Source: Nguyenibacter vanlangensis
GTDB lineage: Bacteria > Pseudomonadota > Alphaproteobacteria > Acetobacterales > Acetobacteraceae
Direction: 5' to 3'
Assembly: GCF_038719015.1 (NCBI RefSeq)
Contig: NZ_CP152276.1
Location: 1,958,501-2,022,500 of the forward strand
Length of the DNA stretch: 64,000 nucleotides
In this document: one piece after another, positions 6,927 to 26,072 of the stretch
How the letters are laid out: each line of letters opens with the position of its first letter
How positions within the stretch are numbered: position 1 is the stretch's first letter
The notes under the pieces: generated by a model
What the model saw: only the letters and a program-made list of their open reading frames with translations
What the model was told of the DNA's origin: nothing
Database searches by the model: none
Translations under genes and position numbers: made by a program

Positions 6927-6933
6927 AGCGCCC

Positions 6934-7200: not shown

Positions 7201-7526
7201 CAGATGAGTGCCCCGCCCGAGAAGGAGAAGAAGGACAGGAAGAAGCTGGACGCGGCGAAGGCGATCGACAGGCCGAAGACGATCTGGATCAGGCGGCGGA
7301 AGCCGCCCGACGTCTCGCCGAAGGCCAGGGTCAGACCGGTCACGGTAATGATGATCACCGAGATGATCTTGGCCACCGGCCCCTGCACGGATTCCAGGAT
7401 CTCGTTGAGCGGGGTTTCCCACGGCATGCTGGAGCCCGAGGCGTAGGCCGGCGCCGACAGCAGGGCGAGCGAGAGGGTGGCGCCAGCCACGGCAAAGCGG
7501 TGGCGCAGGGCAATCATGCTTGTCAT
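7200..7526 (-). CDS. trbC: TrbC (VirB2-like) pilin precursor
   Basis: This 108-residue protein has an N-terminal signal sequence cleaving near SAPAYA-SG. A short mature protein follows, with the two hydrophobic stretches of VirB2/TrbC pilins (ISVIIITVTGLTLAF and FGLSIAFAASSFFLSFF). TrbC is the major subunit of the conjugative pilus. In RP4 it is processed by leader peptidase and cyclised by TraF; a TraF homologue is present here at 31094-31636. The ATG at 7526 overlaps trbB by four bases. Confidence 0.93.
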   Translation of the reverse strand: MTSMIALRHRFAVAGATLSLALLSAPAYASGSSMPWETPLNEILESVQGPVAKIISVIIITVTGLTLAFGETSGGFRRLIQIVFGLSIAFAASSFFLSFFSFSGGALI

Positions 7527-8807: not shown

Positions 8808-11800
8808 ATGACTGCCGGCCGTAAAGACATTCAGGAAGGCGATTTTGTCGAAGTGCGAGGCAAGCCTTGGCTTGTCGAAGCATTGGTTGGCGACGATAGC
8901 GACCTACCCGCCTTAAGTCTGTCCTGCATTTCGGATGACGCCCAGGGCGAGCGGCTTGACGTCCTCTGGGACGCCGAGATTGCCAGAAGGGTCCTCGACG
9001 AGGATCGATGGTCGAATGTGGGTGTGGGCTCTCCCGACAGCGCGGATGTTCTGGCGGCGCATATCCGGGCGATCCGATGGCGCTCCGCGACAGCCGCCGA
9101 TCGGGACCTGTTGCAAGCGCCGTTTCGCGCCGGGATCAGGCTTGATGCCTATCAGCTTCTCCCTCTTCGCAAGGCGTTGCGTCTGCCGCGCGTCAATTTG
9201 CTGATCGCCGACGATGTCGGTCTCGGCAAGACGATCGAAGCGGGCCTTGTCGCGCGGGAACTCCTGCTCAGACGGCGGGTGGACTTCATCGTGATCGCGG
9301 CGCCGCCGGCGATGACGGTCCAGTGGAAGGACGAGTTGGAGGCGAAGTTCGGCCTCTCCTTCGAGATCATAGACCGGGACCGCATCAGCGATCTGCGGCG
9401 CCTACGGGGGTTCTCCGTCAATCCGTGGACCACGGGTTCACGCTTTATCGTGTCGCATCGCCTGCTGACCGATGAAACCTATGCTGCGGGCCTGCGCGAT
9501 GTCCTCGATGAATTTCGGGCGAAGGCTTTGTTCGTTCTGGACGAGGCCCACCACGCGGCCCCATCCGCAGGCACGCGTTACGCCGTTTCCAGCCAGCTCA
9601 CGAAAGCGGTTAGGGAACTCGCGGAACGCTTCGAGCACCGGCTGTTCCTGACCGCCACACCTCATAACGGGCATTCCAACAGCTTTTCCGCCCTTCTCGA
9701 AATGCTCGACCCGCAACGCTTCACGCGCGGTGTCGAGGTCCGGCCGCGCGATCTGGATCCGGTCATGGTGCGCCGGCTGAAGGCCGATCTCCGCCGTCTC
9801 GGCGAGGCCTTCCCGGAACGAGTGGTCGAGCCGATCCCGATCAACGGCCTGCCGGAAGATGCTCCCGAACTGGCGCTCGCACGACTGCTCGCCGCCTATG
9901 GCGAACTGCGCATGAAGCGCATCGCGAAGCTGAGCAGTCAGAAGGCGGCGCTCGCCAAGCTGGCCTTTGTCGGCCTTCAGCAGAGGCTTCTGTCGTCGAC
10001 CGCCGCCTTCGCCCGAACGCTGAAGACCCATCGCGTCACCCTGCAAAAAGTGCTGGACGGCGAAGAGATCGCGCGCGCGACGGCGGCAGCAACCGCGTTC
10101 GTGACAGCCCCGACACCGGAGGACAACATCGAACTGGGCTTGGAAGAGGAAGACGCCGAAAAGGCGATGGCCGCCGATGAAGATGCGGAAGCGGCCACGG
10201 CCTCTGCGGCTGGCGTCGTCGACGCCACGCTTGAGGACTTGCGCGCCGAATTGGCGATCGTCGATGAGATGCTCGCGCTGGCCGAAAAGCATGCCGCTCG
10301 GCCCGACGCGCGCGTCAACTGGCTGATTGGGTGGATCCGCAAGTCCATGTTGGACGGCCGGCAGTGGAATCGCCGCCGGCTGATCATCTTCACCGAGTGG
10401 GAGGATACGAGGCGCTGGCTGGAAAGGCGGTTGCGGGAAGCGCTGGCTGATACCGATGACATTGACGAACGGATCGGTGTCTTCAGCGGCACCACGGGGT
10501 CGGATCGCCGCGAGCAGATCAAGCACGCCTTCAACGCCGATCCCGATGGGGAGCCCTTGCGGGTTCTGATCTGCACCGATGCAGCACGGGAGGGCATCAA
10601 CCTTCAATCTTACTGCTCGGACCTCCTGCATTTCGATCTGCCGTGGAATCCGTCGCGCCTGGAGCAGCGGAACGGCCGTATCGATCGCAAGCTCCAGCCT
10701 GCAAAGCAGGTCTTCTGTCGCTACTTCCGGTACGAGCAACGCGAGGCGGACATTGTTCTCGACGCGCTGGTCTGGAAGACGGAGACCATTCGCGAGGAAC
10801 TCGGCTCAGTCGGGCAGGTCATCGAGGATCGCATCGCCAAGCGGCTGGCCGAAGACGGCATCGGGCACGGACAGGGAAAGGCGCTCGCTCATGCCATCTC
10901 CAATGAGAACGACACGGAGCGGCTCGGCACGGCCCAGTCGGAAATGGACGACGAGGCGAAGGCCCGCCACGAGCGCCTTCTGAAGGAACAAGACGATCTG
11001 AGACGAGTCCTTGAACGCTCCCGCGAGAGGGTCGGCGTCGATCCCGACGATCTTAAGCGGGTCGCTGCCGCCGCGCTGTCGCGCGCGGGCTTCGCCCTCG
11101 ATAACGCGCGCGGCCAGAGCGTCGGCAGGACCGATACCTATCGGCTGGATCCGTCCGATCCTACGTTCTCCAAGGACGCAGGGTGGGATGACGCCTTCGA
11201 CGATCTACGTGTCCGGCCGCGCAAGCGCGGTGAGCGGCTGGGCGATTGGCGGCGCAACGCTCCGATCCGGGCGATCGCTTTCGAGCCTCCGGTTCTCGAT
11301 GATGGTCGCGATGCGACTGACGTCGTGCAGGTGCATCTGGAGCATCGCCTAGTCAGGCGTCTCATATCCCGCTTTTTGAGTCAGGGGTTCCAGTCGAACT
11401 TATCCCGGCTTTCGGTGATCATCGGCCCCGGCGCCCAGCCGCGCGTGGTGCTAATGGGCCGCCTCGCCGTTTATGGCGCCGGCGCGGCCCGGCTGCATGA
11501 GGAGATCATTCCGATCACGGCCATCTGGACGGAGTCCGAACGTGGCCAAAAGCCGCTCCGAGCGCTGGGAGAGAGTGGCGAGGAAAGAACGCTCAACCAA
11601 CTCGAGGAGGCGCTGCGCATCGCGCGCGAAGCCCCCGCCTCCGCAGTGACACGGATACAGGCCCTCGTCGCTCAAGACATAGCTGACCTAACCCCCGCCC
11701 TCGAAACCATCGCGAACGAACGCCTTGCCACGGTCAAAGCCCAGCTCGCCAAGCGGGGAGACGAGGAGGCGCACTCACTCCATGCTCTTCTGGAGAATCA

Positions 11801-12041
11801 AAAGAAAAACATTCTTAAGGCAGTAGAGAAGCACAATCCCAATCAGCCAGATCTTTTTGAAGAGGAAAGGCGGGAGCATCAAGCCAATCGCCGGTATTGG
11901 GACGTTCGTCTCACCAGCATAGAAAATGAAATTCGCGACGAGCCACAGCGTCTGCGCGGCTCCTATGAAGTGAAGGCCCATCGGCTGGAGCCGGTCGGCA
12001 TCGTCTATCTCTGGCCGGTGTCGGGTGAGCGCGATGGCTGA
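8808..12041 (+). CDS. drmD: DrmD-like SNF2-family helicase of class 1 DISARM
   Basis: The chosen ATG at 8808 is preceded by AAAAGAG and gives 1077 residues; an ATG at 8760 would add 16. Motifs include Walker A DVGLGKTIEAG near residue 136, the DEAH box VLDEAHH near 243 and FLTATPHNGHSNSF. The C-terminal helicase half has ICTDAAREGINLQ and HFDLPWNPSRLEQRNGRIDR near 600-630. A long acidic helical region lies between the two halves. Such SNF2-like proteins next to drmMI define class 1 DISARM. DISARM restricts incoming phage DNA while the methylase marks self. The gene overlaps drmMI by 8 bases. Confidence 0.88.
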   Translation: MTAGRKDIQEGDFVEVRGKPWLVEALVGDDSDLPALSLSCISDDAQGERLDVLWDAEIARRVLDEDRWSNVGVGSPDSADVLAAHIRAIRWRSATAADRDLLQAPFRAGIRLDAYQLLPLRKALRLPRVNLLIADDVGLGKTIEAGLVARELLLRRRVDFIVIAAPPAMTVQWKDELEAKFGLSFEIIDRDRISDLRRLRGFSVNPWTTGSRFIVSHRLLTDETYAAGLRDVLDEFRAKALFVLDEAHHAAPSAGTRYAVSSQLTKAVRELAERFEHRLFLTATPHNGHSNSFSALLEMLDPQRFTRGVEVRPRDLDPVMVRRLKADLRRLGEAFPERVVEPIPINGLPEDAPELALARLLAAYGELRMKRIAKLSSQKAALAKLAFVGLQQRLLSSTAAFARTLKTHRVTLQKVLDGEEIARATAAATAFVTAPTPEDNIELGLEEEDAEKAMAADEDAEAATASAAGVVDATLEDLRAELAIVDEMLALAEKHAARPDARVNWLIGWIRKSMLDGRQWNRRRLIIFTEWEDTRRWLERRLREALADTDDIDERIGVFSGTTGSDRREQIKHAFNADPDGEPLRVLICTDAAREGINLQSYCSDLLHFDLPWNPSRLEQRNGRIDRKLQPAKQVFCRYFRYEQREADIVLDALVWKTETIREELGSVGQVIEDRIAKRLAEDGIGHGQGKALAHAISNENDTERLGTAQSEMDDEAKARHERLLKEQDDLRRVLERSRERVGVDPDDLKRVAAAALSRAGFALDNARGQSVGRTDTYRLDPSDPTFSKDAGWDDAFDDLRVRPRKRGERLGDWRRNAPIRAIAFEPPVLDDGRDATDVVQVHLEHRLVRRLISRFLSQGFQSNLSRLSVIIGPGAQPRVVLMGRLAVYGAGAARLHEEIIPITAIWTESERGQKPLRALGESGEERTLNQLEEALRIAREAPASAVTRIQALVAQDIADLTPALETIANERLATVKAQLAKRGDEEAHSLHALLENQKKNILKAVEKHNPNQPDLFEEERREHQANRRYWDVRLTSIENEIRDEPQRLRGSYEVKAHRLEPVGIVYLWPVSGERDG

Positions 12042-15000
12042 TGCTCTCTACCGCGATCGGGACCTCGAATGGCTCGATCACGTCAAGCCGGTCGGGCTGG
12101 TCGTAGCACCCAGCGTTCTCAAGGAATTGGGCCTGACGCCGCTGCATCAGAGCCCCGTCGATACCGCCGAGGCCGCCGAGCGCCTCAATCCGGATGAGCC
12201 CGGACCGGCGCTGCCCGATCCTTGGGCCTTCATGGAACAGGTGCTCGGCTGGAACGCCGCCCATGTCGCGGGAGCGCCAGGCGGACCGGAGCTGCCGGAC
12301 ACTTTGGTTGTGAGCCTGCCCGAGCAAGCGACGACACTGGCGCCGACCTGGGCCGTCGCTGAACTCGGCCAGAACGGCCAGCCTTGGCAGCTACTCGTCC
12401 GCATCGAGGTACCCGGCATCGAGCCTGATGGCCGCGCTCAGCTCGACGGTTGGGAAGCCTCGCCGCATCAGCGCTTCGAGCGGCTGCTGAGGGACACCGG
12501 CGTATTCGCCGGGCTGCTGATCACCGATCAGGAGCTGCGTCTCGTCTATGCCCCGCGCGGCGAGACGTCCGGCTATCTCGCCTTCCCGCTGCGCCCGCTT
12601 GGGCTCGTGGCCGGACGGCCAATGCTCGGCGGGCTGAAGCTGCTTCTCGACAGCTTCCGCCTGTTCTCGGACGCGGACGAGCGCCGCCTTCCTGCTCTCC
12701 TGAAGAAGAGCCGTGACGCCCAGGCGTCGGTCTCGACTGAACTCGCTGGCCAGGTCCTCGGCGCGCTGCATGAGCTGCTCCGTGGCCTCGATGCGGCCGA
12801 TGCCGATTTGGTGCGGGAACTGGCGCGGTCGAACCCCGGCCACCTTTACGAGGGGCTGCTCACCGTTCTCATGCGGCTGGTCTTCATCCTCTATGCCGAG
12901 GATCGCGATCTGCTGCCGTCACGCGCCGACGCCCGCGCGCGGGGGATCTATGAGACCAGCTATTCGGTCCGCGGCCTCTACGCGAGGCTCGCCGAGGACG
13001 CCGCGCTCAACCCGGACACCATGGACGAGCGGTGCGGCGGTTGGGGGCAGTTGCTCGTGCTCTTCCGGTTGATCCACAAGGGGCATCCGTCGCACTTCGT
13101 TCAAGCGCGCGGCGGCAAGCTCTTCGATTCCGACGAGTTCCCCTTCCTGGAAGGCCGCGCCGCCAAGGACGATGCGCCGCGTATCCTGAGCGTGTCGGAC
13201 GGGTGCATTCTGCGCATCCTTGAAGGGCTGATGACCCTGAAGCTGCGCGGGCATGAGCGCGAGCGCCTGTCCTACCGCACGCTGGATGTCGAACAGATCG
13301 GCTCGGTCTACGAGACGGTGATGGGCTTCACCGTCGAGGCGGCCAGGAGCAGCGTAATCGCAATCAAAGCCGGCAAGAACAACCGGACGCCAGTGTTTGT
13401 GGCCCTCGACGAACTGCTGGCCCGCAAGGGCAAGGACCGGATCAAGGACCTGAAGGAGAATGTTGGCCGGTTGCTTACGCCCGCGCAGGCGAAGCCCGTC
13501 GAGGCTGCGAAGAGCGTCGAGGAACTGGCCGCGGCCTTCGAGGGCATGGTGGATGAGCGCGGATCGCCGCGCCACGTCATGGCGCCAGCGGGAACGCCGA
13601 TCCTCCAGCCGACCGGCGAGCGCCGCCGCACTGGCAGTCACTATACACCGCGCAGCCTGACCCAGCCGATCGCCGCCCACGCGCTGGAACCGGCTTTCTC
13701 GCGGCTGGGGCCGGATGCGACGCCGGAACAGATTCTCGATCTGAAGGTCTGCGATCCGGCGATGGGTTCGGGCGCGTTTCTGGTGGAGGCCTGCCGCACC
13801 ATCGCTACGCGGCTGGTCAACGCTTGGCTCCGTTGGCCCGAGAAACGGCCGACGATCCCGCTTGATGAAGACGAGGATCTGCACGCCCGCCGCCTTGTCG
13901 CACAGAACTGCCTTTACGGTGTGGACAAGAATCCCCGCGCGGTCGATCTGGCGCGGCTGTCTCTATGGTTGGCGACACTGGCTAAAGATCACGAGTTCAC
14001 CTTCCTCGATCATGCGTTGAAATGCGGGGACAGCCTGGTAGGCCTCAATACCCAGCAGCTGAGCGGCGGAAACTGGGACAATGCCCGGGTGCGCAGCACT
14101 CTTATCGGGCAGGCCGTCAGCGAGCGCGTGGCGAAGCTGGCCGCGCATCGCGACGCAATCCGCAATGCGCCCGACGACGTTTCGCTGGCAATCCAGCAAT
14201 CCCGCCACGCCATCGCGGAGAACGAAGCGGCGCTGGTCCGCCTGATCGGCGATGCGATCGTCGCTGCCTTCTTTAAGAACGATAAGGCCAAGCAGCGGAT
14301 TGACGAGGTGCGTTACGTTACCACCATGGCGGGCACCACCAATTGGTGGGATGGCCTGCGCAATATCGCTGTCTCGTTGGAGGGCGGAGAGCATCCTATC
14401 CGGCCCTTTCACTGGGAAGTGGAATTTCCCGAAGTGTTTGGGCGGGAGAATCCCGGCTTCGACGCTATCGTCGGCAATCCGCCTTTCGCCGGAAAGAACA
14501 CGACTATTGCCGGAAATCGCGCGAACTACTTGCCTTGGCTGCAAACGCTGCATCCGGGCGCGCATGGGAATGCCGATCTTGTCGCGCATTTCTTCCGCCG
14601 CGCCTTCGGGCTCTTGCGGGACGGCGGAACCTTTGGGCTGATCGCGACCAATACCATCGGACAGGGCGACACCCGCGACACCGGGCTGACGACGATACTC
14701 CGCGAGGGTGGTACGATCATGCGGGCGACCCGGCGGCTGAAATGGCCCGGCGAAGCTGCGGTGGTCGTCAGCGTGGTGCATGTGCTCAAGGGTGCAGTAG
14801 CCTCGCCGGTGCTTGACGGCAGGCGGGTGCGGCGGGTTTCGGCCTATCTGGTCGAGGGCGATCTCGACACCGCGCCCGAGCGTCTGACGGCAAATGCGCG
14901 CAAGGCATTTGTCGGTTCCTATGTGCTCGGCATGGGCTTTACTTTCGACGACGTGGCAGCGGCCAAGGGCGAGGCCGAAAGCCTTGAGACGATGCGCGCG

Positions 15001-16047
15001 CTGATCGACAAAGACGCGCGCAATGCGGAGCGGATTTTCCCCTATATTGGCGGTGAGGAGGTCAATACCTCGCCGACCCACGCCTATCGTCGCTATGTGA
15101 TCGACTTCTTCGACAGACCACTCAGGCGGGATTCCTCGTTGATGTCCTGGTTCCTCAACGAAGGTTCAGACGCTTGCGGCAAACGCCGCCGAGAGTGGTT
15201 ACGAGATGGGATCGTGCCAAGTGATTATCCGGACGAGGTCGCGGAGGACTGGCCTGATCTGATCGAGATCGTGCGGCGCCGAGTGAAGCCTGAACGCGAT
15301 CCGCAAAAGCGTGATGCTCTGCGTGTCCGCTGGTGGCAATATGCGGAAAAACGTCCTGGGCTCTATCGCGCTATTGCACCATTGGACCGGGTGTTGGTTC
15401 GATCGCTGACAAGCGCTCACTTTCCGACTTTCTCTTGGCTACCCCACGCTTATGTCTACGATCAGACCAACATAGTCTGGGCTTCAGAGTGCTTTGGAAT
15501 GCAAGCGGCGCTTTCATCACGGGCGCACGAGATTTGGGTGCGTTTTCTTGGCGCGACCATGAAGGACGATAGTCGATACAACATTGCCGACTGTTTCGAG
15601 ACTTTCCCATTCCCGGAAGGTTTCGAAACCTTGCCCGTACTCGAAGCTGCCGGGAGGACTTATCACGATCACCGCGCCGAGCTGATGGTCGCCCGCAACG
15701 AGGGCATGACCAGGACCTACAACCGCTTCCAGGATCGGCATGACAACGCCGCCGACATCGTGCGGCTGCGCGACCTGCACACCGAAATGGATCGCGCGGT
15801 GCTCGAAACTTATGGCTGGCACGATCTCGCCGCCCGCGTCGTGCCGATCTTCCTCGACGAGTCCAACGAAGACGACCACACCTATCAGGGCCGCCTTTTC
15901 TGGCCCTCCGAGTTCCGCGACGAAGTTCTCGCTCGCCTTCTCGCGCTCAATGCCGAACGCCATGCCGAGGAAATGCGCCGGGACTTGGCGGGACAACCGG
16001 GCACCGAAGACGACGAGCAGGCTCAGGAAGACGAGCTTATCGAGTAA
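12034..16047 (+). CDS. drmMI: DrmMI-like adenine-specific DNA methyltransferase of DISARM
   Basis: The protein has 1337 residues from ATG 12034; GTG 12025 would add three. An N-terminal region of about 500 residues resembles type IIL/Eco57I-like enzymes. A gamma-class methylase core follows, with GSHYTPRSL, AdoMet motif I DPAMGSGAF near residue 573 and catalytic NPPF near 814. A target-recognition region then leads to a C-terminus with AEMRRDLAG-like helices. In DISARM this enzyme methylates host DNA so that the system spares it. No nuclease motif is evident at the N-terminus. The gene is coupled to drmD by overlap. Confidence 0.88.
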   Translation: MADALYRDRDLEWLDHVKPVGLVVAPSVLKELGLTPLHQSPVDTAEAAERLNPDEPGPALPDPWAFMEQVLGWNAAHVAGAPGGPELPDTLVVSLPEQATTLAPTWAVAELGQNGQPWQLLVRIEVPGIEPDGRAQLDGWEASPHQRFERLLRDTGVFAGLLITDQELRLVYAPRGETSGYLAFPLRPLGLVAGRPMLGGLKLLLDSFRLFSDADERRLPALLKKSRDAQASVSTELAGQVLGALHELLRGLDAADADLVRELARSNPGHLYEGLLTVLMRLVFILYAEDRDLLPSRADARARGIYETSYSVRGLYARLAEDAALNPDTMDERCGGWGQLLVLFRLIHKGHPSHFVQARGGKLFDSDEFPFLEGRAAKDDAPRILSVSDGCILRILEGLMTLKLRGHERERLSYRTLDVEQIGSVYETVMGFTVEAARSSVIAIKAGKNNRTPVFVALDELLARKGKDRIKDLKENVGRLLTPAQAKPVEAAKSVEELAAAFEGMVDERGSPRHVMAPAGTPILQPTGERRRTGSHYTPRSLTQPIAAHALEPAFSRLGPDATPEQILDLKVCDPAMGSGAFLVEACRTIATRLVNAWLRWPEKRPTIPLDEDEDLHARRLVAQNCLYGVDKNPRAVDLARLSLWLATLAKDHEFTFLDHALKCGDSLVGLNTQQLSGGNWDNARVRSTLIGQAVSERVAKLAAHRDAIRNAPDDVSLAIQQSRHAIAENEAALVRLIGDAIVAAFFKNDKAKQRIDEVRYVTTMAGTTNWWDGLRNIAVSLEGGEHPIRPFHWEVEFPEVFGRENPGFDAIVGNPPFAGKNTTIAGNRANYLPWLQTLHPGAHGNADLVAHFFRRAFGLLRDGGTFGLIATNTIGQGDTRDTGLTTILREGGTIMRATRRLKWPGEAAVVVSVVHVLKGAVASPVLDGRRVRRVSAYLVEGDLDTAPERLTANARKAFVGSYVLGMGFTFDDVAAAKGEAESLETMRALIDKDARNAERIFPYIGGEEVNTSPTHAYRRYVIDFFDRPLRRDSSLMSWFLNEGSDACGKRRREWLRDGIVPSDYPDEVAEDWPDLIEIVRRRVKPERDPQKRDALRVRWWQYAEKRPGLYRAIAPLDRVLVRSLTSAHFPTFSWLPHAYVYDQTNIVWASECFGMQAALSSRAHEIWVRFLGATMKDDSRYNIADCFETFPFPEGFETLPVLEAAGRTYHDHRAELMVARNEGMTRTYNRFQDRHDNAADIVRLRDLHTEMDRAVLETYGWHDLAARVVPIFLDESNEDDHTYQGRLFWPSEFRDEVLARLLALNAERHAEEMRRDLAGQPGTEDDEQAQEDELIE

Positions 16048-16068
16048 CCCAGCGCCACCGGCCCGAAA

Positions 16069-16272
16069 TCAGGGCCGGCGCCACTTATCGGGATGAGCCC
16101 GATTCGTGTTGCGGACGCGCTCGACAAGCACGTCGCCGCCGCGCTCTTGAGCCCAGTCGATCGCCGCGCCCTGTGTCGGCCGCACGACGCTCGCCCGCTC
16201 GGAGCCGGGCTTGCGAACCGCGTAGTCGCCCGTCTCGGGGCGACGCTCGATGAACATTCTCTTGTCAGCCAT
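16069..16272 (-). CDS. Small DUF2188-like protein
   Basis: This 67-residue protein starts at MADKRMFIERRPETGDYAVR. It looks like the DUF2188 family: short proteins with alternating strands that carry an R-P-x-G-x-Y/W-x-V core and a C-terminal RNTNRAHPDKWRRP. The function of the family is unknown to me. The gene is antisense inside the DISARM locus, converging on drmMI with 21 bases between stops. A stem CCGGCCC/GGGCCGG (16058-16078) spans the convergent junction and could stop transcription from both sides. It diverges from the XRE-ImmA gene across a 106-base region holding an operator-like repeat. The longer upstream start is less likely. Confidence 0.65.
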   Translation of the reverse strand: MADKRMFIERRPETGDYAVRKPGSERASVVRPTQGAAIDWAQERGGDVLVERVRNTNRAHPDKWRRP

Positions 16273-16324
16273 GGGGAAAACTCCCAATTGGGTTCACCGC
16301 CCGAATCGGCGGCCTGATCGCAAT

Positions 16325-16356
16325 ATAATCTTGCAATCTAGAGTCCGCAAGATTAT
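16325..16356. promoter_or_regulatory. 10-bp inverted repeat, probable operator of the XRE-ImmA gene
   Basis: Perfect arms ATAATCTTGC (16325-16334) and GCAAGATTAT (16347-16356) flank a 12-base spacer. The site lies between the divergent DUF2188 gene (start 16272) and the XRE-ImmA/IrrE gene (start 16379). The sequence here is locally AT-rich, as expected of a promoter. XRE regulators commonly bind such symmetric sites to control themselves. Binding by the adjacent protein is inference. Confidence 0.6.
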
Positions 16357-16378
16357 CCAGCATCCAGGAGACAGCAGC

Positions 16379-17491
16379 ATGACCAATCTCATTGGAGCGC
16401 GGATCAAGGCCCTGCGGGAGGAACGAAGCCTCTCTCAGGACGACCTCGCGCGCCTCTTCGGCTTCAAGGATCGGCAGACGGTCTCCGCTATCGAGACCGG
16501 CGAGCGCCGCGTCACGGCGGACGAACTGCTCCTTGCCGTCGAGAAGCTCGGGACGTCGCTCGACTATTTCACCGATCCCTTCCTGTTGGTCGGCGAAGGA
16601 CGCTTTTCTTGGCGGCAGACCAATGTCGGCTCGGGTGTTCTGAACGGCTATGAGCGCAGCGCAGGCCGTTGGATCGCGGCCTTTCGGGTGATCGCGCCCC
16701 AGGTCGGGAGGGCGAGCCCATTGCTGCGCCGGGCCCTCGGCCTGACGCGCCACTCGCGGTTCGAGGATGCGATGGAGGCCGGCGAGCGCTTCGCGGCCGA
16801 GTTCGATCTCGGTGAGGTGCCCGCCCAGCGTCTGGCCGAGGTGACGGAGCGCGAGCTAGGGATACTCGTGCTCATGGTCGATGCCTTTGAGGGCATCTCG
16901 GGCGCCGCCTGCCGTCTGCCGGAGCTGGATGTCGTGCTGATCAATCGTCACGAGGTGGAGGGCCGGCGTCACTTCGACTTGGCGCACGAGCTGTTCCACA
17001 TCCTCACCTGGGATGCGATGCCGCCCGAGCACTCGGAGGAAGCCAAGGAGGTCGGTGGCAACCGCGTCGAGCAGCTCGCCAACAATTTCGCTTCGGCGGT
17101 GCTCATGCCGAAGACCGCGCTCGCGCGCTATGGTGAATGGGCGGAGCTTGGCGACGACGACCTCATTGCAAAGCTCAATGCCACCGCCGATGAATTGCTG
17201 GTCACGGCTTCCGCGCTCAAATGGCGGCTGGTCGCACTTGACCGGCTGAAGCCGGTGCGTGCGCGCGCGATCTCCGACGCGGCGCTGCGAAACAACGGGC
17301 ACAATGGACGCGGGGCGCCCAAGGTCGTGCCGCCACTTCTGTTCTCGAAGCCATTCATGGAAGTGATCGCCCTCGCAATCGACGAGGGCCGGGTTTCGAC
17401 CCGCCGCGCTGCGGGCCTGCTCGATCTCACTGTCGAGGACCTGACGGACCTCTTCGTTGCGCACGGGGTCGAGCCCCCGGCCGAGCTATGA
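16379..17491 (+). CDS. XRE-family regulator fused to an ImmA/IrrE (COG2856) metallopeptidase
   Basis: This 370-residue protein starts at MTNLIGARIKALREER, with AGGAGA eight bases upstream. The first 65 residues form an XRE helix-turn-helix (LSQDDLARLFGF, then QTVSAIETGERRV). A zincin domain with HELFH in FDLAHELFHILTW near residue 205 and EQLANNFASAVLMP follows, as in ImmA/IrrE proteins that cleave repressors. The C-terminus has a small helical region. Such fusions pair with toxin genes in known toxin-antitoxin families, and the next gene, a PIN-domain protein, starts seven bases downstream. Its place inside a DISARM operon is unusual. It may sense infection by proteolysis, but that is inference. 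Confidence 0.85.
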   Translation: MTNLIGARIKALREERSLSQDDLARLFGFKDRQTVSAIETGERRVTADELLLAVEKLGTSLDYFTDPFLLVGEGRFSWRQTNVGSGVLNGYERSAGRWIAAFRVIAPQVGRASPLLRRALGLTRHSRFEDAMEAGERFAAEFDLGEVPAQRLAEVTERELGILVLMVDAFEGISGAACRLPELDVVLINRHEVEGRRHFDLAHELFHILTWDAMPPEHSEEAKEVGGNRVEQLANNFASAVLMPKTALARYGEWAELGDDDLIAKLNATADELLVTASALKWRLVALDRLKPVRARAISDAALRNNGHNGRGAPKVVPPLLFSKPFMEVIALAIDEGRVSTRRAAGLLDLTVEDLTDLFVAHGVEPPAEL

Positions 17492-17498
17492 GGCGACC

Positions 17499-18014
17499 AT
17501 GGCGCGGCACCGCGGGCCAGTTCTGGTCGACACGAACGTCATTCTCGAATCCCACCGGATCGGCGCATGGGCGGCGCTAGCCGGTGGCTATCCGGTCGAG
17601 ACGGTCGAGGACTGCGTGACCGAGACCCAGACGGGTTTCCAACGGCGGCGGGCGGAGCAGCAGATTGATGCAGCGGCCCTGCGTGCGTCGCTGGCGGGGG
17701 TTCACGCGCCGGGAGATCGCGAGATTGCGGCAGCGGTCGTGAGAGCGCCCGACATTGCGCTGGACATCGGTGAGCGCTCGCTCTGGGCGCACGCGCTGAC
17801 CCGGACCGATGGCTGGATCCTGTGCGGGCCGGACAAGGCCAGTCTGCGCTTCGGCGTCCGGCTCGGCCATCGTGATCGGCTTGTCGCCTTGGAGCGGCTT
17901 CTCGAAGACGCAGGCTATCGGCCGAAGGAACCCCTGAAACTGGCGTACACGAGCAAGTGGCTGGAGAAGACTCTCGGCGAGCTTGTCCTTTCGGAAGGAG
18001 TGGGCCGGACATGA
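17499..18014 (+). CDS. PIN-domain-like protein paired with the XRE-ImmA gene
   Basis: This 171-residue protein starts at MARHRGPVLVDTNVILES. The opening hydrophobic strand and VDTN match the first acidic motif of PIN nucleases. Further acidic residues lie in ETVEDCVTETQTGF, GERSLWAHAL and GWILCGPDKASLRFG, the last resembling the third PIN motif region with CGPD in place of TxD. PIN domains cut RNA and act as toxins in VapBC-like systems. It follows the XRE-ImmA gene by seven bases and overlaps drmA by ATGA, so it is built into the DISARM operon. Toxicity is unproven; a degenerate PIN acting in signalling is also possible. Confidence 0.7.
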   Translation: MARHRGPVLVDTNVILESHRIGAWAALAGGYPVETVEDCVTETQTGFQRRRAEQQIDAAALRASLAGVHAPGDREIAAAVVRAPDIALDIGERSLWAHALTRTDGWILCGPDKASLRFGVRLGHRDRLVALERLLEDAGYRPKEPLKLAYTSKWLEKTLGELVLSEGVGRT

Positions 18015-21000
18015 CAAGCTCAGTCGACATTCGCGCTCATCTCGTCGATCTGTTTCGCCGCGATCTCATCGGCCCCGGCCCGCAGGACGCCGATCTTGCG
18101 ACCGAGCGGCTGAATGAGAGCCCTTCGCGCTGGTATTTGACCGGCTTCCTCGCGCCGGCTGAAGATCCGCTCGGTCTTGAAGGCGAGGATGACGACGACG
18201 ATCCATCGGCCCAGGAGGAAATGGAGATCGACGTCGAGGAGTCCGACACCGACGGCGCTGGAGGCGCGGCTGGCGACAATGAGGAGCCGGAGACGCCAAA
18301 CACCAAGCGTCGATTTCTTCCTTCATCCATCGGATTGACGGTTCTACTCGCGCCGGATGTCACCGAGATCGAAGCGCTTGTCTCTTGGGGCGACTACCGC
18401 ACTGAGCCACCCCTGCCGGAAAGCGTGCTGTTGCCCGAGCCGCTTCCAGAAGAAGAAGTCGGCGAGGACGGCAAGCCCAAGCGCGGCGCGCGACCGATGG
18501 TGGACTGGGTTCGCATACCCAAGGCACAGACGGTGCGCGTTCCGGTCGTGGATGGGCGCGGCGTGCCGGTTGTCGTCCCCGAGAGTGCCGCTGAGCAGCG
18601 GCGCGGCGGCGGGCTGGTGTTGGAGACCCACTCTCGGCTGTTCAGCTACCAGACCCCGGAGGGGACGACGGAGACAGTCCGCGCGCTCACGGTCTTTCTC
18701 GTGAACCGCCGCCTGACGGTCCATCGGTTTTACTCCGACGTCAGCTTCATATTCCAGGCGCGGCTCGAACTCGTTTGCGAGCGTGGCTTCCGTCCTCGTC
18801 GCGACCTCTCCGGCTACAATTCGCAGGACTGGGATTTGCGGGTCGGCGATCTCCACTATCGCGATGTTCTTGAATGGGCAGTGGGTCGCAACATTGCCGC
18901 TGATTGGGAGACCAGCGAGGAATGGAATGCGCCAGTTAAGCGCGTCTGGACCAATCCCCTGCCGACTGCCGAGGTGGAGCGGGTCGCGCCCAACGAGGAT
19001 GCCAGCCTGAAGACCGCCGTCACCTTCGGCATGGAGCCTCTGGCGCAAGTCGCGGACGCCGGAGGCGCGGCTCTGGCGCAGGCGCTCGGCCAGCTCCCAA
19101 AGCTCTACGAGCTATGGATCGACGCGGAACGGCTCAAGCTGCCGTCGCTCGCGCCGCGACGCGGCCAGACCGGTGCCCATCTGATTGCCGAGATGGAGGC
19201 GGCGAAAGACCGGATCGCCGCCGGTATTCAACTCCTGGCGCAGAACGACAAGGCGCGCTCGGCATTCCGGTTCATGAACCTTGCAGTCGCCATGGCGGCG
19301 CGCCGCAGGAATGCTGGCGCTTCGGGGGACCCGCAAGCGATGCCGACGCCAACGTGGCGACCGTTCCAGCTTGCCTTCATCCTGCTCAATCTCTCCGGGC
19401 TGGCGGAGCGGACGCATCCGGATCGCGAGATCGCCGATCTCTTGTTCTTCCCAACCGGCGGCGGCAAGACGGAGGCCTATCTCGGTCTCGCTGCCTTTGT
19501 CATCGCCCATCGACGCCTCTCGGGGGCGGGCTTGCTTGGGGCAGGTGTGGCCGTGATCATGCGCTACACCCTGCGGTTGCTGACGCTCGATCAGTTGGCC
19601 CGTGCCGCCGGCGTAGTTTGCGCGCTCGAATTGATGCGGACCGATCCGGCCAATGCCAGCGAGCAAGGCCGCTGCTTACTCGGTGATTGGCCGATCGAGA
19701 TCGGCCTGTGGGTCGGTTCGGATGCGTCGCCCAACAGGCTCGGGGGGCGTGGCAAGTCGGACGAAACCACGGCTGTCGGTCGGGTGCGGCGTTTTCGGAA
19801 CGGTCGAGACAAACGCGCGCCAGCGCCGCTAAAGGCGTGCCCTTGGTGCGGCACGGAATTCACGCCTTCGTCCTTCGCCTGCATGCCTAACGAGCACGCA
19901 CCGACAAACCTTGAGATACGCTGTGCCAATTCGAATTGCGACTTCAGCCGCAATCGGCCACTGCCTGTCCTCACGGTTGATGAGCCGATCTACCGGCGCT
20001 TGCCCGCATTCCTGATCGCGACGGTGGACAAGTTCGCGGCGCTCCCCTGGGTGGGTGAGACCGGCGCCTTCTTCGGTCATGTCGATCGCTTCGCGGCTGG
20101 CGCGGGCTTCTACGGTGCGGCCGAGCCAGGCGAAGGGCAGCCTTTAGGCAACGGTTGGTCGCTCGACCCGCCCGACCTCATCATCCAGGACGAGCTGCAC
20201 CTCATTTCCGGTCCGCTCGGAACGGTCGCGGGCCTCTACGAAGCGGCGATCGACCAGTTGGCGTCCCGTCGATACGGCGAGCGTGTCGTGCGCCCGAAGA
20301 TCGTCGCTTCGACCGCGACGGTGCGCCGAGCCACGGACCAGATCGCCGCTTTGTTCGATCGCAAGACGACCAGTATCTTCCCGCCCTCCGGGATCGATCG
20401 GACTGACAGCTTTTTCGCCCGGACCGTGCCGGCGACCAAAGACCCGGCACGTATGTATATGGGCATCGCCGCCCAGGGCCGGGGGCCGAAGCTGGTGTTC
20501 CTACGGTCGCTTACCAGTTTGCTGGCAGCGGCGCAGGCTGAGTTCGATGCCAATACCGTAGCCGGTGGCGGCAGCAATCCGGCCGATCCTTACATGACCG
20601 CTGTCTGCTACTTCAACGCGCTGCGCGAGTTGGGCGGAGCGCGGAGGATCGTTGAGGATGAGGTCCGGGATCGCGCGGCGCGCTACGGGGCGCAGCGCCA
20701 CCGGATCGACCCTCCCGATCGTCCCTTTGCCGATCGACGCATTAAGGAACCGATGGAGCTGACTTCGCGCGTTTCGACGGATGAGGTCGCGAAGGCCAAG
20801 CAACGGCTGGAACTGCGCTTTGGGGCGGGGGCCGATCCTGTCGACGTGGCGCTTGCCACGAACATGATCTCGGTCGGTCTCGACATCACCCGCCTCGGTC
20901 TCATGCTCGTCCAAGGGCAGCCGAAGACAGCGGCAGAGTATATTCAGGCGACCAGTCGAGTCGGCCGCGATCCCGGACGCCCTGGATTGGTGTTGGCGGT

Positions 21001-21556
21001 GCTGAATATGCACAAGCCACGCGACCGCATGCACTTTGAGCAATTCGGCCAATTCCACCGGACGTTCTATCGCGCTGTCGAGGCCACCAGCGTAACACCC
21101 TGGGCTGCTCGCGCGCTGGATCGCGCGCTTGCGGCTGTCGTCGTCGCAGCGGCACGGCATATCGATTCGACGCTGACGCCCGAGACGGCCGTCGTCGCCT
21201 TCAAGAATAACCCGGCAGTACGGACTACTGTCCGCAATGCGATCCTGGCGCGAGCCCCCGCAAGCATGGTCGCGGGCGGCCACGCGACATTGGGTGCCGC
21301 GATAGATGCTATCGCCGATGCCTGGATCACAACCGCCGATGATCAATCGGCAGGAGGCAACACATTTGCCTACGCCCAGAAGAAGAGCCCCCACCGCTTG
21401 CTGCACATGCCGCTCGATGGGGCGATCCCGAACCTTTCCGATCAACACCGGTTGTTTGTGGCAGGACGATCAATGCGGGACGTGGAGGCCAGCGTCGATT
21501 TGAAGGTCCGTGACCCTCGCGGCCAAAAGATAGCCAATGCGGATGACCTCGCATGA
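18011..21556 (+). CDS. drmA: DrmA helicase-domain protein of DISARM
   Basis: This 1181-residue protein starts at MTSSVDIRAHLVDLFRRDLIGPGP. The N-terminal 100 residues include an acidic Asp/Glu tract (DDDDDPSAQEEMEIDVEE). The helicase core has Walker A FPTGGGKTEAY near residue 480, a zinc-ribbon-like insertion (CPWC near 609 and CANSNC near 637), Walker B IIQDELH near 726 and ATSRVGRDPGRPG near 980. DrmA and DrmB form the shared core of all DISARM classes and are thought to engage incoming DNA. The start overlaps the PIN gene and the end overlaps drmB by four bases, so all three are translationally coupled. Confidence 0.9.
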   Translation: MTSSVDIRAHLVDLFRRDLIGPGPQDADLATERLNESPSRWYLTGFLAPAEDPLGLEGEDDDDDPSAQEEMEIDVEESDTDGAGGAAGDNEEPETPNTKRRFLPSSIGLTVLLAPDVTEIEALVSWGDYRTEPPLPESVLLPEPLPEEEVGEDGKPKRGARPMVDWVRIPKAQTVRVPVVDGRGVPVVVPESAAEQRRGGGLVLETHSRLFSYQTPEGTTETVRALTVFLVNRRLTVHRFYSDVSFIFQARLELVCERGFRPRRDLSGYNSQDWDLRVGDLHYRDVLEWAVGRNIAADWETSEEWNAPVKRVWTNPLPTAEVERVAPNEDASLKTAVTFGMEPLAQVADAGGAALAQALGQLPKLYELWIDAERLKLPSLAPRRGQTGAHLIAEMEAAKDRIAAGIQLLAQNDKARSAFRFMNLAVAMAARRRNAGASGDPQAMPTPTWRPFQLAFILLNLSGLAERTHPDREIADLLFFPTGGGKTEAYLGLAAFVIAHRRLSGAGLLGAGVAVIMRYTLRLLTLDQLARAAGVVCALELMRTDPANASEQGRCLLGDWPIEIGLWVGSDASPNRLGGRGKSDETTAVGRVRRFRNGRDKRAPAPLKACPWCGTEFTPSSFACMPNEHAPTNLEIRCANSNCDFSRNRPLPVLTVDEPIYRRLPAFLIATVDKFAALPWVGETGAFFGHVDRFAAGAGFYGAAEPGEGQPLGNGWSLDPPDLIIQDELHLISGPLGTVAGLYEAAIDQLASRRYGERVVRPKIVASTATVRRATDQIAALFDRKTTSIFPPSGIDRTDSFFARTVPATKDPARMYMGIAAQGRGPKLVFLRSLTSLLAAAQAEFDANTVAGGGSNPADPYMTAVCYFNALRELGGARRIVEDEVRDRAARYGAQRHRIDPPDRPFADRRIKEPMELTSRVSTDEVAKAKQRLELRFGAGADPVDVALATNMISVGLDITRLGLMLVQGQPKTAAEYIQATSRVGRDPGRPGLVLAVLNMHKPRDRMHFEQFGQFHRTFYRAVEATSVTPWAARALDRALAAVVVAAARHIDSTLTPETAVVAFKNNPAVRTTVRNAILARAPASMVAGGHATLGAAIDAIADAWITTADDQSAGGNTFAYAQKKSPHRLLHMPLDGAIPNLSDQHRLFVAGRSMRDVEASVDLKVRDPRGQKIANADDLA

Positions 21557-23418
21557 CCAAGAACGCACAGCGTCTGAGCCAACTGATTTCCACCTTCGGG
21601 CCGGGAGCCATGATCGACTTGCCGACAAGGTCGGTTGTGGTCGCCGGGCTCGAATTTTGGGACATGCCGCCCACCTCTTTCGCGACCATCTCGGAGCCGC
21701 GGCTGACGGCGAGACTGGAACAGATCCTCAAGGATCAGGGACGTCTAGACCCGAACAGCAGCCTGTCTCTGCGCACCCCGCCGATTGCACCGGACAGCCC
21801 GACCGCACTGCCAGCCGGAGTTACCGCGCCGATCTTCCCGACATGGTTCGTCTGTGAGTTGGCCGACGTCTTGACCGTGGGCTCCGGAACGATCCGGCGC
21901 CGTCGTCTCGTGCGATGGCAGGACCTGGACACCAGAGGGCGCCGTCGCTTCATTTTTGACGACGGGCGAAAATCGGATGTGACACCAATCCGGTTCGTAG
22001 CAGCTTGCGAAAAAGGCCATTTGCAGGACATCGACTGGCGGTGGGTCGTCCATGGGCCGGTCCAGTGCCAGGAGCCGCTTTGGGTCGAGGAAAAAGGGAC
22101 GAGCGCGGACCCTGCCGACACGAGCATCGTATGCGGCTGCGGTAAGAACCTTTCGCTTCAGGACGCCTTCCAACCTGGGCGTTTGGGGAAATGCCAGGGC
22201 GAGCGGCCCTGGTTGCTGGATCGGGATCCTGACGGCTGCGGGGAAAATCTGAAGCTTCTCACCCGGACAGCTACGAACACCTACTTCCCGCAAGTCTACA
22301 CGGTTATCTCGTTACCGAGCGCGGTGGATGATTTGACCCGATTGGTTGGTGAACTCGCAGGCGAACTGACGAACGTCGCGTCAGCCCAGGACGTCGCTAT
22401 AGCCAAGAAATTCAACAACAAAGTATCCGCGTCGCTCGGCACTTACAGTGACGATGAGATTTTCGAACGCCTCGAACGCCTTCGTGCGGGAGCACAGGCC
22501 GATGCGTCCCGGTCTCCCAAGATGTCCGAGTTCGACGTGTTCGCGAGTGGCCACCAACAAATCGGGCAAAATCACCCGACAGCCAAGCTCTACGCGGAAA
22601 CTCTTCCGCGGACGGCATGGGTTGACTCAAGTGTCAGTGTTGACACCTCGGCCATAAAGAACCTCGTCGCCGTTCATCGCCTGAGAGAGGTGTCGAGCCT
22701 GTACGGCTTCACGCGATTCGAAGCCGCACCCACGAGTTCGGACGGCGACATCGAGGACATCCAACTGGCCGTTCGCGGTGCGCCGATCTCGCGGGGAGCA
22801 GACTGGTTGCCTGCCATCGAGCAATTCGGCGAAGGGCTCTTCATCCACATTGACGAGCAGGCGGTGAACCGCTGGCTTCAGACCCCTGACGTCGTCAGCC
22901 GCCAGGCAAGTCTGCTTCGCGGTTACGGACATTGGCGTACCAGATTCTCTGGAGGCGCCCCGAACTATCCGGGAACGGCCTATACGCTGCTCCACTCGCT
23001 CTCTCATGCCTTGATGGCCGAGATCGCGCTCGACAGCGGATATCCCGCGAGTTCTCTGAAGGAACGCATCTACGCACTCAGTGACGCCGGCAACGGCGGT
23101 GTTCCTGTGAGATGCGGAATCTTGATCTACACGGCAACGCCCGGCGCTCAAGGTACATTGGGCGGGCTCGTCGCTGCCGGATCGCGATTCTCCAGCATTC
23201 TGCGAAGTGCGCTCGATCGGCTGATGATCTGCTCGAATGACCCGGTTTGTTCGGACCATGAGCCGGATGGCCGCAGCGGGGACAGGGCAACCCACGGTGC
23301 TGCCTGTCACGGGTGCCTGCTCATCGCGGAAACGAGTTGCGAGATGCGGAACTTGTTCCTTGACAGAAGTTTACTGATTCAAACAATGGCACATCATCAA
23401 TCAAATTTTTTCGATTGA
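21553..23418 (+). CDS. drmB: DrmB, DUF1998-domain protein of DISARM
   Basis: This 621-residue protein starts at MTKNAQRLSQLISTFGPGAMIDLPTRSV (read in parts). The N-terminal FGPGAMIDLP and CEKGHLQDIDW stretches are typical of DrmB. Paired Cys (VCGCGKN, then GKCQGERPW) suggest a zinc site. The C-terminal DUF1998 domain holds LLHSLSHALM and the Cys-rich end CHGCLLIAETSCE. DrmB associates with DrmA in the DISARM core. Class 1 loci normally continue into drmC, a phospholipase D-like gene; here drmB is followed only by 84 bases and then the antisense copG stop. Confidence 0.9.
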   Translation: MTKNAQRLSQLISTFGPGAMIDLPTRSVVVAGLEFWDMPPTSFATISEPRLTARLEQILKDQGRLDPNSSLSLRTPPIAPDSPTALPAGVTAPIFPTWFVCELADVLTVGSGTIRRRRLVRWQDLDTRGRRRFIFDDGRKSDVTPIRFVAACEKGHLQDIDWRWVVHGPVQCQEPLWVEEKGTSADPADTSIVCGCGKNLSLQDAFQPGRLGKCQGERPWLLDRDPDGCGENLKLLTRTATNTYFPQVYTVISLPSAVDDLTRLVGELAGELTNVASAQDVAIAKKFNNKVSASLGTYSDDEIFERLERLRAGAQADASRSPKMSEFDVFASGHQQIGQNHPTAKLYAETLPRTAWVDSSVSVDTSAIKNLVAVHRLREVSSLYGFTRFEAAPTSSDGDIEDIQLAVRGAPISRGADWLPAIEQFGEGLFIHIDEQAVNRWLQTPDVVSRQASLLRGYGHWRTRFSGGAPNYPGTAYTLLHSLSHALMAEIALDSGYPASSLKERIYALSDAGNGGVPVRCGILIYTATPGAQGTLGGLVAAGSRFSSILRSALDRLMICSNDPVCSDHEPDGRSGDRATHGAACHGCLLIAETSCEMRNLFLDRSLLIQTMAHHQSNFFD

Positions 23419-23502
23419 TGCGACAGTAGAGGTGCAGGGTCCATCCTTCTATGTTGACGCTGGCTTTATAGAAGCATTGCGGGCAGACGATGGACCGCCG
23501 AT
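23419..23502 (+). other. Drm-to-ICE junction with a short open remnant instead of drmC
   Basis: Only 84 bases separate the drmB stop from the copG stop. A frame different from drmB stays open to a TAG at about 23506 and would encode VEVQGPSFYVDAGFIEALRA and a few more residues. It reads like the end of a coding sequence. It may be the relic of a lost gene or the old junction of the insertion. It is too short to identify, and chance is not excluded. Confidence 0.3.
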
Positions 23503-23937
23503 TTAGGAATTTTGCTCTTGGCCGATAGGCTCCAAATCCAGCCTGACCTCGTCATCCAGCGTCATCCCACGTGCGAGCCGTCGCCCGACAGCTTCAACAA
23601 AGCCGTCATATCGCTCCCGCCCCTTGCTTTGCGCCGCAGCCAAAGCCGCATCCGGCAGCGGCGGCGTGCTGGTCAGCCAGAACCGCACGAACACGGCGAG
23701 CGATTCATTGGCGATGGTGACCCGTTGTTCCATCCGCTCCAGCTGCCGCGTCATCCGGTCCAGCCGCCGGGCCAGTGCGGCTTCAAGTCGCTCCGCCCCG
23801 TCCGGCGACAGAAATGACGCCAGCGCCGTTTCCACGATCAGCGCCTGCGGTACCTTCTTGCGGGCCGCGTAATCGGCGAGCCTGACGCTGAGATCGGCGG
23901 GTAGCCGGATCGTGTGCTTGATCCGCATGGCAGTCAT
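23503..23937 (-). CDS. CopG/ribbon-helix-helix regulator of the transfer operon
   Basis: The protein has 144 residues. The N-terminus carries a ribbon-helix-helix fold (MRIKHTIRLPADLSVRLADYA, read in parts), followed by a helical tail with ARRLDRMTRQLERMEQRV that may oligomerise. In related ICEs this gene lies between traG and trbB. It overlaps traG by ATGA, but its other neighbour is now drmB on the opposite strand rather than trbB. It probably regulates conjugation genes or aids the coupling protein; neither is shown here. Confidence 0.85.
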   Translation of the reverse strand: MTAMRIKHTIRLPADLSVRLADYAARKKVPQALIVETALASFLSPDGAERLEAALARRLDRMTRQLERMEQRVTIANESLAVFVRFWLTSTPPLPDAALAAAQSKGRERYDGFVEAVGRRLARGMTLDDEVRLDLEPIGQEQNS

Positions 23938-25916: not shown

Positions 25917-26072
25917 GACGATCACCGATCAAGGAGATCGGCGCCGCTGACTTCAATCCCTGAGTTGAGACAATGGGTTTCCCGGATAGTTCCGGATAAA
26001 AATCGGATCTACCCCCGGACGCCAGATCACTCGACCGAGGGCCGACCGGCGCAGCGATTCCCACTCCACGCG

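What the first reader, a model, noticed from the sequence alone, without database searches (positions are those of the whole stretch)
8808..23502. Class 1-like DISARM locus without drmC and with extra built-in genes
Seen in sequence: drmD, drmMI, drmA and drmB are all complete and tightly coupled, but the phospholipase D-like drmC expected after drmB is missing and only 84 bases remain before copG. The unit instead contains an XRE-ImmA gene, a PIN-domain gene and an antisense DUF2188 gene. Known: DISARM class 1 is drmD-drmMI-drmA-drmB-drmC. Inference: the PIN nuclease may replace drmC as effector, making this a distinct subtype.
Basis: partly seen in the sequence, partly recalled or inferred. 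Interest (0 to 1): 0.8.

Follow-up and report, generated by a model that had tools for sequence, protein, structure and literature searches.

The report
DISARM with built-in repressor–PIN switch
A known type of bacterial anti-virus system (DISARM) here lacks one optional gene and carries an inserted pair, a probable self-regulating repressor-protease and a probable RNA-cutting protein, placed in front of its DNA-attacking genes, which may give the system its own on-switch.

Summary
In detail: drmD, drmMI, drmA and drmB are intact, drmC is absent, and an XRE-ImmA gene, a PIN-like gene and an antisense DUF2188 gene lie between drmMI and drmA. Absence of drmC is not new: a DISARM paper calls it dispensable and often missing, and I found class 1-like relatives with neither drmC nor PIN. 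So 'PIN replaces drmC' is weakly supported.

The interest lies in the cassette. XRE-ImmA–PIN directly precedes drmA in 42 loci; in the 37 whose junction is readable, PIN stop and drmA start adjoin. A palindrome, TCTTGC-N12-GCAAGA, precedes XRE in 70 of 83 loci (shuffles: 0.05 of 83), occurs once in this 4.75 Mb genome, and was found before none of the drm genes tested. The pair also occurs without DISARM, with the same operator, so it is a mobile RosmerTA/CapH-CapP-like module.

Best reading: a DISARM subtype split into a methylation unit (drmD-drmMI) and a repressible unit (XRE-ImmA–PIN–drmA–drmB) that the repressor-protease releases on an infection or DNA-damage signal, with PIN as toxin or back-up effector. 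Regulation is inferred from sequence; nothing was tested at the bench, and the PIN fold is unconfirmed because the structure machine stayed full.

The parts
8808..12041 (+). drmD, SNF2-like helicase (ORF opens at 8760)
   Evidence: NF038317 1010.6 bits, PADLOC DrmD 986 bits
12025..16047 (+). drmMI, adenine-specific methyltransferase (Eco57I/MmeI type); true start not settled
   Evidence: PADLOC DrmMI 1225 bits; Eco57I, MmeI_Mtase
16069..16272 (-). DUF2188 gene, antisense; not part of the conserved core (found in 8 of the 42 PIN-drmA loci)
   Evidence: PF09954 E 5.4e-6; HMM survey
16324..16329 (+). TATAAT, possible -10 box, overlapping the operator; no clear -35 and not reported by the promoter scan
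   Evidence: sequence; scan
16325..16356 (.). operator: ATAATCTTGC-N12-GCAAGATTAT, perfect 10-base arms (core TCTTGC-N12-GCAAGA 16329-16352)
   Evidence: sole perfect copy of the core in the genome
16379..17491 (+). XRE-ImmA: helix-turn-helix repressor fused to an ImmA/IrrE zinc peptidase (HELFH)
   Evidence: HTH_3 6e-13, Peptidase_M78 1.8e-10; PADLOC RmrA 5e-18, capP 3.8e-15; HExxH in 36 of 36 DISARM rows aligned
17499..18014 (+). PIN-like nuclease/toxin gene, stop overlaps drmA start (ATGA)
   Evidence: first three acids D, E, D in 36 of 36 DISARM rows aligned, fourth D in 35 of 36; PF01850 in 4 of 51 relatives; coupling
18011..21556 (+). drmA, helicase (DrmAS)
   Evidence: NF038325 1114.8 bits
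21553..23418 (+). drmB, DUF1998/MZB protein
   Evidence: NF038324 529.7 bits, MZB 1.5e-9

Best explanation
This is a drmC-less class 1 DISARM that has been rewired by a captured toxin/regulator cassette. The locus works as two units. drmD-drmMI is read on its own, so the host DNA can be methylated first. The second unit, XRE-ImmA–PIN–drmA–drmB, is read from a promoter covered by the XRE protein bound to its palindromic operator. XRE-ImmA is a single-chain repressor and zinc protease, so it combines what CapH and CapP do as two proteins, and it also acts as RmrA-like antitoxin of the PIN protein. On a signal of infection or DNA damage, probably single-stranded DNA, the protease domain cuts the repressor. 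This raises drmA-drmB and PIN expression and frees PIN, which cuts RNA as a second line of defence or as a check on a failing DISARM. Shown here: gene content, conserved order, start/stop coupling, intact catalytic residues, operator and its place. Inferred: the two transcripts, repression, signal, proteolysis, PIN toxicity and RNA as its target.
For: XRE-ImmA–PIN–drmA in this order in 37 loci with a readable junction (W, 3 plasmids, the search for related loci and genome-search loci); of these 33 show drmMI and 30 drmD upstream and 36 show drmB downstream. PIN stop to nearest drmA start is -4 or -1 bases in all 37, although DrmA identity falls to about 50%. Operator before XRE in 70 of 83 loci (39 of 41 with drmA, 31 of 42 without; 45 of 83 perfect), shuffled upstreams 0.05 of 83, maximum 1 in 20 rounds. 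Operator (at most 1 mismatch, -250 to +40) absent before drmD 0 of 33, drmMI 0 of 48, drmA 0 of 64, drmB 0 of 62; perfect core once in the own genome, where XRE is also single-copy. HExxH and three PIN acids kept in 36 of 36 DISARM rows. XRE and PIN distances follow DrmA (Mantel r 0.85, 0.81; DrmB 0.99, DrmD 0.98, DrmMI 0.94; 0 of 2000 permutations as high). In five near-identical Mesorhizobium loci (L109-L113) drmA is broken and PIN stops early, at 112 aa. Literature, passages read: CapW/BrxR and CapH+CapP are said to regulate adjacent immune operons, DISARM among those named, CapP being activated by ssDNA (PMC13373217); ImmA-type PprI is activated by ssDNA (PMC10904395); XRE-COG2856 fusions are often in operons with PIN or RelE toxins (PMC2701414); RosmerTA is antiphage (PMC10440598).
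Against: No experiment. The promoter scan reported no sigma-70-type site at the operator, and only a weak hairpin follows drmMI (z -1.58), so read-through from drmMI into the second unit is not excluded. 13 of 83 upstreams lack the operator at this cut-off. XRE/PIN follow DrmA less tightly than DrmB or DrmD does, and L155's pair groups with pairs outside DISARM, so the cassette moves. 39 of 75 pairs in the tree have no drmA in the stretch fetched, so PIN cannot act only through DrmAB. PIN assignment by sequence is weak and no structure could be computed.
Confidence: 0.6

Rival explanations
1. PIN has taken over the effector nuclease role of drmC: DrmAB finds and unwinds foreign DNA and PIN cuts it.
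For: drmC and embedded PIN are mutually exclusive (0 of 42, 0 of 12); PIN is coupled to drmA; in 5 loci without DISARM the pair precedes a helicase that I read as YprA-type.
Against: Seven class 1-like loci have neither nuclease; absence of drmC looks older than PIN in the DrmA tree; DrmC is dispensable and other host PLD nucleases were proposed to serve (PMC9142583, passages); PIN comes with XRE-ImmA; most pairs outside DISARM have no such helicase next to them.
Confidence: 0.15
2. Selfish addiction module: a RosmerTA-like pair inserted into DISARM and hitch-hikes, adding stability to the mobile element but nothing to DISARM.
For: The pair exists without drmA, with the same operator in 31 of 42 such loci; in L050 it follows a TrwB/TrwC pair, and L053, L057 and L102 hold genes of the same clusters; the window locus itself lies among conjugation genes.
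Against: One fixed place before drmA in 37 loci with 1-4 base coupling; co-inheritance with DrmA; in Mesorhizobium PIN is cut short where drmA is broken.
Confidence: 0.2
3. Ordinary drmC-less DISARM with passenger genes: the cassette has no function in common with DISARM and is only carried along.
For: Other loci hold other genes in the same slot (Thiodictyon, Trichormus, Microvirga), so the slot tolerates insertions.
Against: Catalytic residues, operator and coupling are conserved down to about 50% DrmA identity.
Confidence: 0.05

Closest known systems
DISARM class 1 (drmD-drmMI-drmA-drmB-drmC)
   Same: Four of the five genes, order, and family models over their cut-offs for drmD, drmA and drmB
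   Different: No drmC; XRE-ImmA–PIN cassette with its own operator between drmMI and drmA
RosmerTA (RmrA ImmA-type antitoxin with varied toxins) and the XRE-COG2856 + PIN pairs of Makarova 2009
   Same: XRE plus ImmA/M78 protein next to a small toxin-like gene; PADLOC RmrA E 5e-18; PIN pairing described in print (passages)
   Different: Embedded in and coupled to a multi-gene defence operon instead of standing alone
CapH+CapP immune-operon regulators
   Same: HTH repressor and metalloprotease before an immune operon; PADLOC capP E 3.8e-15, capH 7e-6
   Different: One fused chain here, and it comes with a PIN gene; cleavage and ssDNA response not tested
R-M controller (C) proteins
   Same: HTH and palindromic operator that would delay the effector behind the methylase; C.AhdI and C.BclI are among the nearest solved HTH chains
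   Different: HTH is part of a protease; the target is a helicase pair, not an endonuclease
DarTG2 toxin-antitoxin embedded in a type I R-M operon under RptR (PMC12255303)
   Same: A toxin-antitoxin pair embedded in a restriction operon with a repressor of the island's promoter (passages)
   Different: Other families; there the repressor is a separate small protein

Membership tests
DISARM class 1 | drmA and drmB core | tested here: met
   NF038325 and NF038324 over cut-off
DISARM class 1 | drmD and drmMI | tested here: met
   NF038317 over cut-off; PADLOC DrmMI 1225 bits
DISARM class 1 | drmC after drmB | tested here: not met
   84 bases between drmB and the next gene; one DrmC model on the genome gave a single ORF under the cut-off. 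One paper calls drmC dispensable and often missing, so I file this as a drmC-less variant, not as a full class 1 system
DISARM class 1 | protection against phage | not testable with these tools
   bench test needed
RosmerTA / XRE-ImmA–PIN toxin-antitoxin | XRE plus ImmA/M78 antitoxin with HExxH | tested here: met
RosmerTA / XRE-ImmA–PIN toxin-antitoxin | adjacent small toxin gene; PIN fold | tested here: inconclusive
   adjacent and conserved in 51 aligned sequences; PIN by recalled motif and weak PF01850 only; profile comparison with two annotated VapC/PIN proteins found no match; no structure
RosmerTA / XRE-ImmA–PIN toxin-antitoxin | toxicity neutralised by the antitoxin | not testable with these tools
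   bench test needed
CapH+CapP regulators | HTH repressor with operator at the immune-operon promoter | tested here: inconclusive
   conserved palindrome before XRE in 70 of 83 loci and not before the drm genes, but no promoter was found by the scan and binding was not tested
CapH+CapP regulators | two separate proteins | tested here: not met
   HTH and peptidase lie in one chain; hence 'works like', not 'is'
CapH+CapP regulators | ssDNA-activated cleavage of the repressor | not testable with these tools
   inferred from homology

The most novel reading that the evidence does not exclude
An inducible two-stage DISARM. The fused repressor-protease reads out ssDNA or other signs of infection and switches on DrmAB together with a PIN ribonuclease. 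PIN is a built-in abortive back-up that fires when DrmAB fails or is blocked, so clearing foreign DNA and cell suicide are run by one switch.
Probability: 0.3. Interest if true: 0.8.

Novelty: new variant of a known kind. Interest (0 to 1): 0.6.

Why it matters
How DISARM is kept from harming its host, and which nuclease does the killing when drmC is absent, are not settled in the papers I saw. This locus offers a switch that can be tested directly: one operator, one repressor-protease, one toxin-like gene, each removable. It would also link two defence layers, DNA restriction and toxin-antitoxin, in one operon, found here mainly in alphaproteobacteria.

Tried and rejected
PIN as simple substitute for drmC: weakened by loci that have neither. 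DUF2188 as part of the unit: only 8 of 42 loci carry it by my HMM; other loci hold other genes in that slot, among ten slot proteins scanned one ankyrin, one HD-domain and one M78 protein, the other seven without a Pfam match. Terminator between drmMI and DUF2188: hairpin no better than z -1.58. Sigma-70 promoter scan: nothing at the operator. Operator with up to 2 mismatches: 12 places in the window against 2.8 by chance; I took only the site before XRE as real, since the one other place with 1 mismatch is drmA coding sequence. Viral contigs with a PIN relative: 30 pattern matches, none confirmed. Profile comparison of the PIN family with two VapC/PIN proteins of L031: no match. PDB sequence search with the PIN profile: nothing at E 1; at E 10 five phosphoglucomutase chains, E 1.3 or worse. 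traG, copG, trbB and trbE of the window near the other drmA loci: none in the stretches held; the same search found them in L163 as a control. Those stretches reach only a few kb past the DISARM. AlphaFold of the PIN and XRE families could not be run.
Full report
Observation. The four DISARM genes are present, complete and tightly packed: drmD 8808-12041, drmMI 12025-16047 (start not settled), drmA 18011-21556, drmB 21553-23418. drmC is absent: the next gene ends 84 bases after drmB on the other strand. In the whole genome one DrmC model (NF038319) matched a single ORF, best 42.3 bits against a cut-off of 133; it is 472 aa long and looks to me like a cardiolipin synthase (by eye, no family search). 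Between drmMI and drmA lie an antisense DUF2188 gene (16069-16272), an XRE-ImmA gene (16379-17491) and a PIN-like gene (17499-18014).

Where it sits. To the left are TrbB-like (7523-8491) and TrbE-like (4500-6926) genes, to the right a CopG-like gene (23503-23937) and a TraG coupling protein (23934-25925), all on the minus strand. On an Indioceanicola plasmid the homologues (TraG 72%, CopG 56%, TrbB 82%, TrbE 75% identical) follow one another with copG next to trbB. The DISARM therefore appears to be cargo placed between copG and trbB of a conjugation operon. I did not show the empty site in a close relative.

Relatives. A protein search of plasmids with the PIN gave 5 records. Acidibrevibacterium (drmMI split by an IS element), Methylocystis and S. 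meliloti (drmD broken into pieces) carry the same DISARM layout; R. ruizarguesonis and B. cenocepacia carry the XRE-PIN pair without DISARM. Of 100 related genomes searched with the PIN, 2 matched, the own one included. A scan of genome contigs with the 6-row PIN alignment found 115 relatives, of which 80 were kept. With loci from the genome search this gives 42 loci that hold both PIN and drmA. Five of these (L109-L113) are near-identical Mesorhizobium loci with a broken drmA; L055 and L154 are identical in the trees; in L080 and L097 drmA is interrupted or shortened. Of the 37 loci other than L109-L113, XRE precedes drmA in 37, drmMI in 33 and drmD in 30, and drmB follows in 36.

Unbiased view. 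The set above was fetched by PIN similarity, so its numbers are not frequencies. In searches that started from drmA, 63 plasmid records matched, and three of them (H6, H7, H12) are among the five PIN records. In the genome samples 5 of 385 and 6 of 398 genomes had a DrmA over the cut-off. These are ten different genomes: three with the PIN (the window's own, L154, L155), four with drmC (L116, L151, L152, L153), three with neither (L117, L118, L119).

drmC and PIN. An HMM built from 8 DrmC proteins of plasmid records (7 annotated as DrmC, one as phospholipase D) found drmC in 12 loci with drmA, none with PIN or XRE. None of the 42 PIN loci has drmC; 32 of these have at least 1000 bases after drmB to look in, the others are cut short or broken. 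A divergent PLD could escape this: Methylocystis (L032) has a protein annotated as phospholipase D family between drmMI and XRE, without a PADLOC or Pfam match at 0.001. One further DrmC hit is in L105, where a drmB-drmC pair lies about 8 kb from an XRE-PIN pair, on the other strand. Of 61 DrmA rows in the tree 34 are PIN, 12 drmC and 15 neither (10 shorter rows dropped). PIN needs 4 changes, drmC 2, neither 6, and the 39-row part with all PIN rows has no drmC (quick tree, midpoint root, long-branch warnings printed). PIN-less, drmC-less rows in that part include Sphingomonas, Ensifer, Paracoccus and Sulfitobacter plasmids. drmC absence there does not depend on PIN.

The cassette. In all 37 loci whose junction could be read, the PIN stop and the nearest in-frame drmA start overlap by 4 or 1 bases. 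The script takes the nearest start; in four of them (L042, L043, L045, L048) that start is a GTG and a likelier ATG lies 5 bases after the PIN stop. Three PIN acids and HExxH are present in all 36 DISARM rows aligned, the fourth acid in 35 (13 loci with a partial XRE or PIN dropped). XRE and PIN distances follow DrmA with r 0.85 and 0.81, less than DrmB (0.99), DrmD (0.98) or DrmMI (0.94). In the XRE-PIN tree rows with and without drmA need 4 changes, at least 2 forced by starred branches; L155's pair falls among those without. So the cassette was probably captured, is mostly inherited with DISARM, and still moves. 'Without drmA' means none in the stretch fetched; three such loci (L060, L068, L100) end within about 300 bases after PIN.

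The operator. Before XRE lies TCTTGC-N12-GCAAGA. With at most one mismatch it occurs from 150 bases before to 20 after the XRE start in 70 of 83 loci (39 of 41 with drmA, 31 of 42 without). 21 other matches fell in 1.51 Mb of these loci; 17 of the 21 are the stretch of drmA that encodes its Walker-A-like FFPTGGGKT motif (my count and reading). 45 of 83 are perfect, against 0.05 of 83 on average with any match in 20 rounds of shuffled upstreams. Near-identical loci inflate these counts. It is absent before drmD, drmMI, drmA and drmB in the loci tested (0 of 33, 48, 64, 62). In this genome the perfect core occurs once, at 16329-16352. A TATAAT at 16324-16329 overlaps it, but a sigma-70 scan reported no promoter there.

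Mechanism. XRE-ImmA matches PADLOC RmrA (5e-18), capP (3.8e-15) and capH (7e-6). Among solved structures its best match is 9vzy_A, an HTH protein without a functional name, then IrrE proteins; its HTH also matches R-M controller proteins. From passages read: XRE-COG2856 fusions are often in operons with PIN or RelE toxins (PMC2701414); ImmA-type antitoxins define RosmerTA (PMC10440598); CapW/BrxR and CapH+CapP regulate adjacent immune operons, among them DISARM, the passage not saying which of the two goes with DISARM (PMC13373217); CapP and PprI are activated by ssDNA. I infer autorepression, ssDNA-driven self-cleavage, and a PIN ribonuclease toxin; none of these is shown here.

A second helicase link. 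In five loci without DISARM (L067, L079, L082, L083, L096) the pair is followed within 40 to 118 bases by a helicase. All five match TIGR03817 with 394 to 408 bits, under its cut-off of 874; L067, the only one scanned with Pfam, has DEAD, Helicase_C and MZB domains. I read them as YprA-type, the family whose helicase and DUF1998/MZB parts are split into DrmA and DrmB in DISARM (PMC12458937, passages). In L050 the pair follows a TrwB/TrwC pair and precedes a Dsr2-like gene; in L057 it precedes a NERD-domain gene with weak NACHT matches.

Novelty. My full-text searches listed no paper whose title or shown abstract start describes an XRE-ImmA–PIN cassette in DISARM. In PMC12458937 the whole word 'PIN' does not occur and 'ImmA' does not occur. 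Supplements, preprints outside PMC and most subscription papers were not searched. That DISARM can be next to such damage-responsive regulators is stated in print, so I call this a new variant of a known kind.

Noticed in passing
window 4500-8491 and 23503-25925: The DISARM sits between copG/traG and trbB/trbE homologues of a conjugation operon, as cargo splitting that operon; a related plasmid has copG next to trbB.
   Followed up: partly
L067:10556, L079:10541, L082:3215, L083:2522, L096:10583: XRE-ImmA–PIN pairs without DISARM directly followed by a TIGR03817-like helicase (DEAD plus MZB in the one scanned), a possible further defence unit.
   Followed up: partly
L036:8150-8797 and the same slot in L038, L042, L043, L045, L048, L055, L077: A roughly 215-aa protein family between drmMI and XRE in eight DISARM loci; two members tested match no NCBIfam model and one no Pfam model.
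   Followed up: partly
L129:7741-8890: In Thiodictyon the drmMI-drmA slot holds an MqsA-type antitoxin and a SecB-like chaperone, suggesting another toxin-antitoxin-chaperone module captured at the same place.
   Followed up: no
L126: In a Sphingomonas plasmid drmD-drmMI-drmA-drmB lies inside a type I-E cas locus, between cas3 and casA.
   Followed up: no
L050:3704-14189: XRE-ImmA–PIN between a TrwB/TrwC-type pair and a Dsr2-like SIR2 defence gene.
   Followed up: partly
L109-L113: Near-identical decayed DISARM remnants in five Mesorhizobium: drmA broken, PIN shortened, XRE open.
   Followed up: partly
L105: A drmB-drmC pair about 8 kb from an XRE-PIN pair, on the opposite strand.
   Followed up: no
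PIN alignment A2: Two of 51 PIN-family members weakly match the PADLOC candidate PDC-S70 (best E 0.0008), whose meaning I did not look up.
   Followed up: no
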